Source: Candidatus Sulfopaludibacter sp. SbA3 (GTDB lineage: Bacteria; Pseudomonadota; Alphaproteobacteria; Caulobacterales; Hyphomonadaceae). Taken from it: a DNA stretch of 64,000 nucleotides. The notes below the pieces were generated by a model, which made no database searches, had not been told where the DNA came from, and worked only from the letters and a program-made list of their open reading frames with translations. The stretch is taken from the NCBI GenBank assembly GCA_945913285.1, contig CAMEDD010000001.1, positions 1 through 64,000 on the forward strand, in the 5' to 3' direction. Of the stretch, positions 15,989 through 17,268 are shown one piece after another (the stretch's first letter is position 1; each line of letters starts with the position of its first letter). The translations under genes and the position numbers were made by a program.

Positions 15989-16600
15989 TCAGCGTTTCCC
16001 GAAACGCTGAAGCACTGGTTTCACGATCCGCCCCGCGCGCTGTCCGATGGCAGACGCGTTGGCGAGACGCCGCGAGATGAACCCGTCGAGGTCCTCCGGC
16101 GACGGATTGTCGGCCCAGTAAAGCACGATCGCCGGAAGCACGCCCGCCAGCAGTGCGCGCTTGGAATACCGGTTATAGTCGTCTGACTGGTCGCCCGCCG
16201 CGGTCCAGATCATGTCCGCCACTTTCCAGGTCCGCTGCAGCGCCGGGCCCGCGCCCCAGGGCAGGAAACCGCGGCTCGCCGCCCGCCGCGCCGCTTCCCG
16301 GTTCGGTGCGAGCGCGTCCAGCCAGGCGATCACGCCGCGTTTCACCTTGTCCGGCACGCGCAGGCCTGTGAGGTCCGCGCTCGCAAGCTCGGCCCGTGCG
16401 CCAGCCTCCGCGGCATCAAAGAACGCATCGATGAGGTTGAGCACGCCCTGCGGCGCCGCCAGTGCCTGTTCGCCTTGTGTAAGCCCGGCGCGGATGGCCG
16501 CTGCGCTCACCGCCGCCTCCGTCCAGCCCTCGAACGCCACCTCAGGCAGCAATTCGGTGAGCCAACGGCGGCGCAGGAGGTGGGATGGTGGTTCGGTCAT
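15989..16600 (-). CDS. COQ9 family protein
   Basis: A 203-residue COQ9-like protein. The N-terminal part resembles a TetR-like fold (LLPEVAFEGWTEAAVSAAAIRAGL), and the C-terminal half has the family's YNRYSKRALLAGVLPAIVLYWADN helix. COQ9 binds lipids and supports ubiquinone hydroxylation through COQ7. ATG at 16600 has GGGGAA six bases upstream; a longer frame exists but has no signal. It is divergent from rpsU, an arrangement common in this group. ubiB and ubiE elsewhere in the window belong to the same pathway. Confidence 0.92.
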   Translation of the reverse strand: MTEPPSHLLRRRWLTELLPEVAFEGWTEAAVSAAAIRAGLTQGEQALAAPQGVLNLIDAFFDAAEAGARAELASADLTGLRVPDKVKRGVIAWLDALAPNREAARRAASRGFLPWGAGPALQRTWKVADMIWTAAGDQSDDYNRYSKRALLAGVLPAIVLYWADNPSPEDLDGFISRRLANASAIGQRAGRIVKPVLQRFGKR

Positions 16601-16734
16601 CGTAAATTCCCCGCAGGCCAGGGCTTGGCGGAACTGCTTGCCCCGTGATATAGGCCGCGCTTTCCGGGCTGTCAGGCCCACCCTGCCTCAATTTCCGGCC
16701 GCTGCGCCAGACCCGAACCCGATGGAGAAGTCCT

Positions 16735-16944
16735 ATAGTACAGATCGTCGTCCGCGATAACAACGTCGAGCAAGCCCTGCGCGCGCTGAAGAAGAAGATG
16801 CAGCGCGAAGGCCTGTTCCGGGAAATGAAAGCGCGTCAGGCGTTTGAAAAGCCGTCCGAGAAGAAAGCCCGCCAGCGCGCCGAAGCGGTGCGCCGGGCCC
16901 GCAAGCTCGCTCGCAAGCGCGCTCAGCGCGAAGGCATCGTTTAG
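16735..16944 (+). CDS. rpsU: 30S ribosomal protein S21, apparent ATA start
   Basis: 69 codons encoding S21: [20 protein letters not shown] at the start, then the basic [17 protein letters not shown] core and an Arg/Lys-rich tail. S21 sits on the small subunit near the anti-Shine-Dalgarno end of 16S rRNA. The codon where the initiator Met belongs is ATA. GGAG lies seven bases upstream, perfectly placed. No in-frame ATG, GTG or TTG exists in the 60 bases before; the first inside is codon 22. A possible promoter TTGGCG-N18-TATAGG is at 16625. A strong terminator follows. Confidence 0.9.
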
Positions 16945-16983
16945 ACTGAGGCCTCAGGCGCGAGCGCCGGTCCAGAGACAAGG

Positions 16984-17019
16984 AAACCCCGCCAGGAACT
17001 CTGGCGGGGTTTTCTTTTT
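16984..17019 (+). terminator. rpsU: Rho-independent terminator of rpsU
   Basis: AAACCCCGCCAG (16984-16995) pairs perfectly with CTGGCGGGGTTT (17001-17012) around a five-base loop and is followed by a T-rich run to 17019. It ends the rpsU transcript 40 bases after the stop. Confidence 0.95.
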
Positions 17020-17268
17020 GGCGGGGGCTCTTCCAGGCCGATCCATCCGTCGCCAACACATGGAGCGCCGCGCCCCCAATGGCTGATTATCGCCGATTGA
17101 GTTGCAAAAGTCCGGTCCCGGCATGAGGAACGCAAAAACCTCCTTGCGGCCGCAATCTACCAACTTCCAACGACCGGACGTTTTCAACACAATCCGCCGG
17201 AAGCTGTTCATCGAGTGCGTCGTCGGAACGTCTGGATCGCCAGCGACCGAGCCGCTATCTCTCGCTCA

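What the first reader, a model, noticed from the sequence alone, without database searches (positions are those of the whole stretch)
16735..16737. rpsU appears to start with ATA
S21 is highly conserved, and the residue before [10 protein letters not shown] must be the initiator Met. The codon there is ATA, with GGAG seven bases upstream, and no in-frame ATG, GTG or TTG exists before the mature sequence. Non-AUG/GUG/UUG starts are rare; infC uses AUU so that IF3 can control it. S21 lies near the anti-Shine-Dalgarno region, so control of its own initiation by a weak codon is an attractive idea, but that part is inference. Automatic gene callers would truncate or miss the gene.
Basis: partly seen in the sequence, partly recalled or inferred. 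Interest (0 to 1): 0.62.

Follow-up and report, generated by a model that had tools for sequence, protein, structure and literature searches.

The report
Ribosomal S21 gene avoids AUG start
The gene for ribosomal protein S21 in this bacterium starts with the rare codon ATA, and in the related bacteria examined the same gene almost always starts with some weak non-AUG codon, which points to a brake on making this protein that evolution has kept, rather than to a sequencing error.

Summary
ATA at 16735-16737 starts rpsU (bS21), seven bases after GGAG, with no in-frame ATG/GTG/TTG. It is not an error: 37 of 37 genus genomes read have ATA (15) or ATC (22). In the order, 136 copies from 135 genomes start with ATC 66, CTG 36, ATA 16, TTG 6, ATT 5, ATG 7. 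The ATG copies form one clade with, by median, the weakest Shine-Dalgarno. A quick rpsU tree needs at least 13 start-codon changes, one involving ATG. Val codon 2 is never GTG (0 of 131; 112 of 497 elsewhere). Controls in the order: S15 ATG 30 of 30, S20 ATG 26 of 26 read. infC, the known IF3-controlled gene, reads as ATA/ATT/ATC in 29 of 30, though 12 have an ATG 4-5 codons downstream. A weak start after a Shine-Dalgarno is thus apparently under selection. Most likely it makes bS21 synthesis IF3-sensitive, as for infC; feedback by ribosomes lacking bS21 is a rival. Regulation is inferred, not shown. Nine literature searches found no description; one relevant preprint could not be read.

The parts
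16624..16652 (+). promoter-like element CTTGGC-17-GATATA of rpsU (the -35/-10 reading is inference)
   Evidence: only match in the window, 0 of 100 shuffles; GGGCTTGGC and CGTGATATAG invariant in 30 distinct genus leaders
16722..16760 (+). out-of-frame ATG overlapping the SD (ATGGAG), 12 codons before a stop inside rpsU; it lies within a longer open frame (16212-16760) and is not a conserved start of rpsU
   Evidence: ATG-to-start spacing 12 or 13 nt in the genus and 14 nt in the sister genus g14, so its frame is not conserved
16724..16727 (+). Shine-Dalgarno core GGAG, 7-nt spacer
16735..16737 (+). ATA start codon of rpsU
16735..16944 (+). rpsU, ribosomal protein bS21 (69 aa), alone between a divergent COQ9-family gene and a terminator-like hairpin
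   Evidence: Pfam PF01165, 69.7 bits
16738..16761 (+). codons 2-9, with unusually low synonymous variation in the genus
   Evidence: synonymous diversity 0.035 against 0.283 for codons 10 and after, lowest of 59 windows; not so in the other five groups tested
16984..17020 (+). terminator-like hairpin with T-rich tail after rpsU (the scan listed it on the - strand only; the + strand reading with its T run is mine)

Best explanation
rpsU of this bacterium starts at ATA. It belongs to an order-wide design in which bS21 is translated from a weak near-cognate start codon (ATA, ATC, ATT, CTG or TTG) placed after a Shine-Dalgarno sequence. SHOWN: the start codon, its conservation, its turnover among weak codons, the near-absence of ATG, the avoidance of GTG at the next codon, and a like start on infC in the same order. 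INFERRED: the weak codon makes rpsU initiation depend on the strictness of start selection, chiefly IF3. When IF3 is plentiful relative to 30S subunits rpsU and infC are held down; when it is short both are released. bS21 supply would thus follow the state of the 30S/IF3 pool.
For: 37 of 37 genus genomes read have ATA/ATC. Order: 129 of 136 copies near-cognate (ATC 66, CTG 36, ATA 16, TTG 6, ATT 5), 7 ATG in one clade. At least 13 changes of start codon on a quick rpsU tree, 1 involving ATG, although ATG is one base from every codon seen. Codon 2 never GTG: 0 of 131 Val against 112 of 497 other Val codons. Leu at codon 1 is CTG/TTG in 42 of 42 against 328 of 494 elsewhere; ATA is 16 of 87 Ile at codon 1 against 2 of 188 elsewhere, so codon 1 is not an ordinary Ile/Leu codon. 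12 near-cognate copies have an in-frame stop at most four codons upstream, leaving no canonical start. A genome with two rpsU copies has weak starts on both (L114 ATA, L115 ATC). Controls: S15 ATG 30 of 30, S20 ATG 26 of 26 read. infC reads ATA 17, ATT 6, ATC 6, TTG 1 of 30. IF3 represses non-canonical starts and infC autoregulates this way (PMC5472188, passages).
Against: No expression, N-terminal or IF3 data were available. CTG and TTG may be discriminated by IF3 less than, or differently from, ATH. One clade (7 copies) does without the weak start while its infC reads ATC in the one genome clearly read (G051), so the two genes are not obligately linked. Of 105 other alphaproteobacterial copies, 72 start with GTG or TTG and 9 with ATG or GTG-like strong starts as listed in the full report. 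Some ATG-started copies outside the order have strong SDs. infC starts were read by position before the (A)RRP motif; 12 of 30 have an in-frame ATG 4-5 codons further on that could be the start. No covarying leader structure was found.
Confidence: 0.55

Rival explanations
1. Feedback by bS21 occupancy: 30S subunits lacking bS21 initiate better on the weak-start rpsU mRNA, and complete subunits do so poorly, so bS21 controls its own synthesis as part of the ribosome.
For: Shown for rpsU of Flavobacterium johnsoniae, where ribosomes without bS21 initiate faster on rpsU mRNA (PMC9976891, passages). bS21 lies near the SD-antiSD helix in E. coli (PMC13009471, passages) and IF3's N-domain binds the 30S platform (PMC5037330, passages). 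An SD accompanies the weak start in the order.
Against: The Flavobacterium mechanism uses very strong SDs (below -13 kcal/mol); the 37 genus copies here give -6.4 to -6.9 (one assumed antiSD, another method). That work concerns SD pairing, not start-codon identity.
Confidence: 0.2
2. Static tuning: the weak codon merely lowers output to the right bS21 level, without regulation.
For: In the order the ATG clade has the weakest SD by median (-4.5, range -2.9 to -6.9, against group medians of -6.4 to -12.3), as if start and SD trade off; such compensation is known in general for GUG/UUG (PMC5622118, passages).
Against: Static tuning could equally be met by ATG plus a weak SD, yet in the order this is seen in one clade only, while the start codon changed at least 13 times on the tree and once involved ATG. 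Outside the order ATG copies with strong SDs exist (median -11.0 for 7, -10.9 for 1), so no simple trade-off holds class-wide.
Confidence: 0.2
3. Initiation is elsewhere: at the next codon (GTA/GTT/GTC), at the upstream ATG of ATGGAG, or by frameshifting from that ATG.
For: A GTC start is known in Streptomyces sigR (PMC5472188). An in-frame ATG lies 12 nt upstream in 10 of 37 genus genomes. 63 of 136 order copies have some in-frame ATG/GTG/TTG within 90 nt upstream without an intervening stop.
Against: Codon 1 is a near-cognate or ATG in 136 of 136 order copies, unexplained if it were untranslated. 61 of 136 have no in-frame ATG/GTG/TTG before the upstream stop. The ATG of ATGGAG is out of frame in the window and in 27 of 37 genus genomes, its spacing varies, and by eye it has no SD of its own.
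Confidence: 0.03
4. Sequencing or assembly error for ATG.
For: The window comes from a draft assembly of 98 contigs.
Against: All 37 genus genomes read have ATA or ATC.
Confidence: 0.005

Closest known systems
infC (IF3) with AUU/AUC/AUA start and IF3 autoregulation (PMC5472188, PMC13009471, passages)
   Same: near-cognate start outside AUG/GUG/UUG after an SD, conserved in the clade; infC of this order reads ATA/ATT/ATC in 29 of 30 loci
   Different: the product here is a ribosomal protein; rpsU also uses CTG often and TTG in one genus; control by IF3 is untested
Flavobacterium johnsoniae rpsU autoregulation by ribosomes lacking bS21 (PMC9976891, passages)
   Same: same gene; unusual translation initiation signal conserved in a clade
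   Different: there an exceptionally strong SD is the signal; here it is a weak start codon with an ordinary to strong SD
rpsT (bS20) UUG start in some Gammaproteobacteria (PMC10931766, passages)
   Same: weak start codon on a monocistronic small-subunit protein gene, proposed to serve autoregulation
   Different: UUG is a canonical alternative start; the review calls that autoregulation neither confirmed nor refuted; rpsT in this order is ATG in 26 of 26 read
Streptomyces sigR GTC (PMC5472188) and Staphylococcus ccpN AUA, cvfC1 AUU with extended SD (PMC13009471), passages
   Same: conserved non-canonical starts; IF3 repression shown for sigR, reduced initiation shown for ccpN and cvfC1
   Different: not ribosomal protein genes; spread over an order with codon turnover is not described in the passages I read

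Membership tests
bS21 ribosomal protein family (PF01165) | profile match over the whole domain | tested here: met
   69.7 bits, cut-off 27, profile 1-55 of 55
genes with IF3-repressed non-canonical starts (infC type) | start codon other than AUG/GUG/UUG | tested here: met
   ATA in the window; ATH or CTG in 123 of 136 order copies
genes with IF3-repressed non-canonical starts (infC type) | weak start conserved among relatives | tested here: met
genes with IF3-repressed non-canonical starts (infC type) | expression falls with more IF3 and rises in infC fidelity mutants | not testable with these tools
   needs a bench experiment
genes with IF3-repressed non-canonical starts (infC type) | change to AUG removes the control | not testable with these tools
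   needs a bench experiment
Flavobacterium-type rpsU autoregulation | exceptionally strong SD (below -13 kcal/mol) | tested here: not met
   37 genus copies -6.4 to -6.9 kcal/mol (one assumed antiSD, not the paper's method)
Flavobacterium-type rpsU autoregulation | ribosomes lacking bS21 initiate better on rpsU | not testable with these tools
   needs a bench experiment
structured ribosomal-protein leader (autogenous operator) | conserved leader structure supported by covariation | tested here: inconclusive
   0 of 11 predicted pairs with compensatory change; window leader folds less stably than nearly all of 200 shuffles; no Rfam family at its gathering score in 16500-17100. The alignment is gappy, and a local hairpin before the SD is modestly favoured in families f1 and f4

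The most novel reading that the evidence does not exclude
bS21 synthesis is governed by start-codon strictness: ribosomes lacking bS21 (with IF3 acting on them less effectively) are more permissive for near-cognate starts, so the weak rpsU start is a sensor of bS21-free 30S subunits, and rpsU and infC together form a small initiation-fidelity regulon in this order and in other alphaproteobacterial families.
Probability: 0.2. Interest if true: 0.87.

Novelty: new variant of a known kind. Interest (0 to 1): 0.68.

Why it matters
Bacterial genes with conserved starts outside AUG/GUG/UUG are few, and infC is the model case (PMC5472188, passages). A ribosomal protein gene that keeps such a start across an order, with repeated switches among weak codons and almost never AUG, would be a second natural system for start-codon-based control, testable in Caulobacter. 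It bears on an open question: a 2024 review says that rpsU regulation in E. coli remains unknown (PMC10931766). It also means that automatic annotation may misplace bS21 starts in these genomes.

Tried and rejected
Leader RNA structure: the genus alignment gave no pair with compensatory changes and the window leader folds less stably than nearly all of its 200 shuffles. A local hairpin before the SD is modestly favoured in families f1 and f4 (median z -1.05 in f1/g1, -2.31 in f1/g14, -1.90 in f4; -0.70 in f2, 0.29 in f3, -0.41 in f5), so it is not used as evidence. Rfam gave only sub-threshold matches, over the 3' end of rpsU and the terminator. The consensus promoter scan found nothing; the promoter-like element came from the alignment. 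Frameshift from the upstream ATG: rejected because the ATG-to-start spacing (12, 13 or 14 nt), hence its frame, is not conserved. Low synonymous variation in codons 2-9 is strong in the genus but not in the other groups (rank of that window among 59: genus 1, g14 21, f2 11, f3 3, f4 10, f5 9). Phage copies: two records of one phage matched; plasmid hits are mostly rhizobial (232 records); neither was followed. The named scan returned mainly Rhodobacterales and Rhizobiales records, so most order members remain unnamed.

Limits of the counts. Order: rpsU read in 135 of 172 genomes with a match; I assigned loci to families by hand from those tables. Rest of the class: 105 copies read, of 224 genomes with a match outside the order, taken mostly from the better-scoring rows, one or two per family, so class percentages are not a census; the 80 named loci are in none of the counts. 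Tree: quick method, 201 nt, branch supports not examined, so 13 changes is a count on one uncertain tree. infC: 31 loci of 61 genomes, 30 read (L335 unread), by position before the (A)RRP motif. S15: 30 loci of 31 genomes, read from the listing; a later script counted 28 and misfired on two. S20: 30 loci of 31 genomes, 26 read (L380, L391, L392, L395 unread). Outside the class: the 30 best-scoring loci, 24 of them from outside. SD energies use one assumed antiSD for all genomes. Script one search printed nothing, and the S20 parts and the infC part were incomplete; searches replaced them.

Full report
OBSERVATION. The codon at 16735-16737 is ATA, preceded by GGAG (16724-16727) with seven bases between. 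The frame from ATA reads [26 protein letters not shown]... and matches ribosomal protein S21 with 69.7 bits. The in-frame stop upstream is at 16651-16653, and no ATG, GTG or TTG lies between it and ATA. An ORF list limited to ATG/GTG/TTG finds only a 48-aa remnant starting at 16798. The gene has one match in this genome.

NOT AN ERROR. In the same genus, 37 of 37 genomes in which I read the gene, the window's included, have ATA (15) or ATC (22) at this place. One further genus genome, G011 (85% complete), gave no rpsU match. Around the start the sequence ATH-GTA-CAG-ATC-GTC-GTC-CG is the same in all 30 distinct genus leaders, although the leader upstream of the SD varies widely.

ORDER-WIDE PATTERN. 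I read the start in 136 gene copies from 135 of the 172 order genomes with a match. The codons are ATC 66, CTG 36, ATA 16, TTG 6, ATT 5 and ATG 7. By family: f1 ATC 33, ATA 16, ATT 5; f2 CTG 13, ATC 2; f3 CTG 16, ATC 4; f4 ATC 16, ATG 7; f5 ATC 11, CTG 7, TTG 6. The seven ATG copies all lie in two genera of f4 (g11, g28) and have the weakest SD by median (-4.5 kcal/mol, range -2.9 to -6.9, against group medians of -6.4 to -12.3; the ranges overlap). A quick tree of the gene, start codon left out, requires at least 13 changes of start codon and a single change between ATG and the rest; the five families need only four changes on it, so it recovers them as groups. ATG is one base from every start codon seen, and ATC and CTG differ by two bases with ATG as one of the two possible intermediates, yet it is nearly absent.

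WHY CODON 1 IS THE START. (a) It is a near-cognate or ATG in 136 of 136 copies. (b) Its Leu codons are only CTG/TTG (42 of 42; elsewhere in the gene 328 of 494) and its Ile codons include ATA far more often than elsewhere (16 of 87 against 2 of 188), so it is not an ordinary Ile/Leu position. (c) 15 copies have an in-frame stop at most four codons upstream; three of these are ATG genes and 12 have only a near-cognate. (d) Codon 2 is Val in 131 copies and never GTG, though GTG is 112 of 497 of the other Val codons; a GTG there would offer a stronger in-frame start. These counts run across related sequences and are not independent trials. Against: 63 of 136 copies have some in-frame ATG/GTG/TTG within 90 nt upstream without an intervening stop, 61 have none at all before the stop and 12 more none within 90 nt; I did not test whether any upstream start is conserved beyond the ATG of ATGGAG, whose spacing varies.

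BEYOND THE ORDER. In 105 further alphaproteobacterial copies (88, 17; not an unbiased sample) there are two layouts. In one the start is at the same place: ATC 15, ATA 6, CTG 5, TTG 4, GTG 2, ATT 1, ATG 1. In the other the start is the next codon, where the Val stands here: GTG 50 (two of them with TTG just before), TTG 12, ATG 8. One is ambiguous (ATA GTG). Starts outside AUG/GUG/UUG are thus 27 of 105 there. Among the named loci, Rhodobacterales records mostly have ATG and Rhizobiales records mostly GTG or TTG at the second place; a Marinicaulis MAG has TTG GTT on two contigs. Among the 30 best-scoring S21 loci of a phylum-wide sample, 24 are from outside the class: 23 start with ATG and one with TTG. 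The rare-codon habit is alphaproteobacterial in this sample and nearly universal in this order.

CONTROLS IN THE SAME ORDER. rpsO (S15): ATG in 30 of 30 loci. rpsT (S20): ATG in 26 of 26 read, four unread. infC, the known IF3-controlled gene: ATA 17, ATT 6, ATC 6, TTG 1 of 30 read, one unread; in the window's genome it is ATA. These are readings of the codon before the (A)RRP motif; in 12 of the 30 an in-frame ATG lies four or five codons further on and could be used instead, in the window's genome not. So the two other ribosomal protein genes tested do not use rare starts; rpsU resembles infC. In the ATG-rpsU clade the one infC clearly read is ATC (G051), so rpsU left the habit on its own there.

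SURROUNDINGS. rpsU stands alone. A promoter-like CTTGGC-17-GATATA at 16624-16652 is invariant in the genus, giving a leader of about 75-80 nt (inference); a COQ9-family gene diverges upstream; a terminator-like hairpin follows. No structured leader was supported by covariation. In the genus the first codons after the start are almost free of synonymous change, which suggests constraint on the mRNA near the start, but this does not extend clearly to other groups.

MECHANISM. [quoted passage not shown] In Staphylococcus, AUA/AUU starts with extended SDs lower initiation to about a tenth of AUG in poor medium (PMC13009471, passages). Genome-wide, GUG/UUG starts tend to be compensated by stronger SDs (PMC5622118, passages). 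Inferred here: the conserved weak start makes rpsU respond to IF3 and 30S state. Ribosomes lacking bS21 control rpsU in Flavobacterium through a very strong SD (PMC9976891, passages); the SD is not of that strength in this genus, so it is not that system, though a feedback through bS21-free subunits acting on start selection remains possible. Plain tuning of output is the dull rival; it leaves unexplained why the repeatedly changing start so rarely becomes ATG. ATG copies with strong SDs do exist outside the order, so whatever keeps ATG away is not class-wide.

NOVELTY. Nine searches of the held library (most list 15-20 of a larger number of papers) showed me no paper describing a near-cognate start of rpsU; I judged from listings and from passages in ten papers, not from whole texts. 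The main text of the Caulobacter genome-architecture paper holds neither rpsU nor S21. A preprint on genes preferring non-AUG starts in bacteria (arXiv:2008.10758) was seen only in reference lists and may list rpsU. I therefore call it a new variant of a known kind.

NAMES. From recall only, the S21 sequences and genome sizes suggest Hyphomonas for the genus and Caulobacterales for the order; this was not tested.

Noticed in passing
L054-L056, L158-L161 (f4 genera g11 and g28): The only order members read with an ATG-started rpsU; they have the weakest Shine-Dalgarno of the order by median and a changed N-terminus (MVEIYVRQNN instead of MVQI-VRDNN).
   Followed up: partly
L114 and L115 (genome G127): Two rpsU copies in one genome, both with near-cognate starts (ATA and ATC).
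   Followed up: no
window 16722-16760 and genus loci: An ATG overlapping the Shine-Dalgarno (ATGGAG) is kept in the genus, its sister genus g14 and part of family f4, but its frame relative to rpsU changes; in 10 of 37 genus genomes it is in frame and could give a 4-residue extension.
   Followed up: partly
window 16738-16761: Codons 2-9 of rpsU show almost no synonymous variation across 37 genus genomes, unlike the rest of the gene.
   Followed up: partly
window 16665-16720 and aligned loci (A2, A3): GC-rich inverted repeats before the Shine-Dalgarno (for example GGGGCGACGCCCC in many genus members); no covariation support was found.
   Followed up: partly
L230, L234, L242 (Bartonella) and L240: ATC or ATA directly before a GTG at the S21 start; which of the two codons is used is unclear.
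   Followed up: no
L319 (genome G058, family f3): infC appears to start with TTG while the 29 other infC genes read in the order show ATA, ATT or ATC.
   Followed up: no
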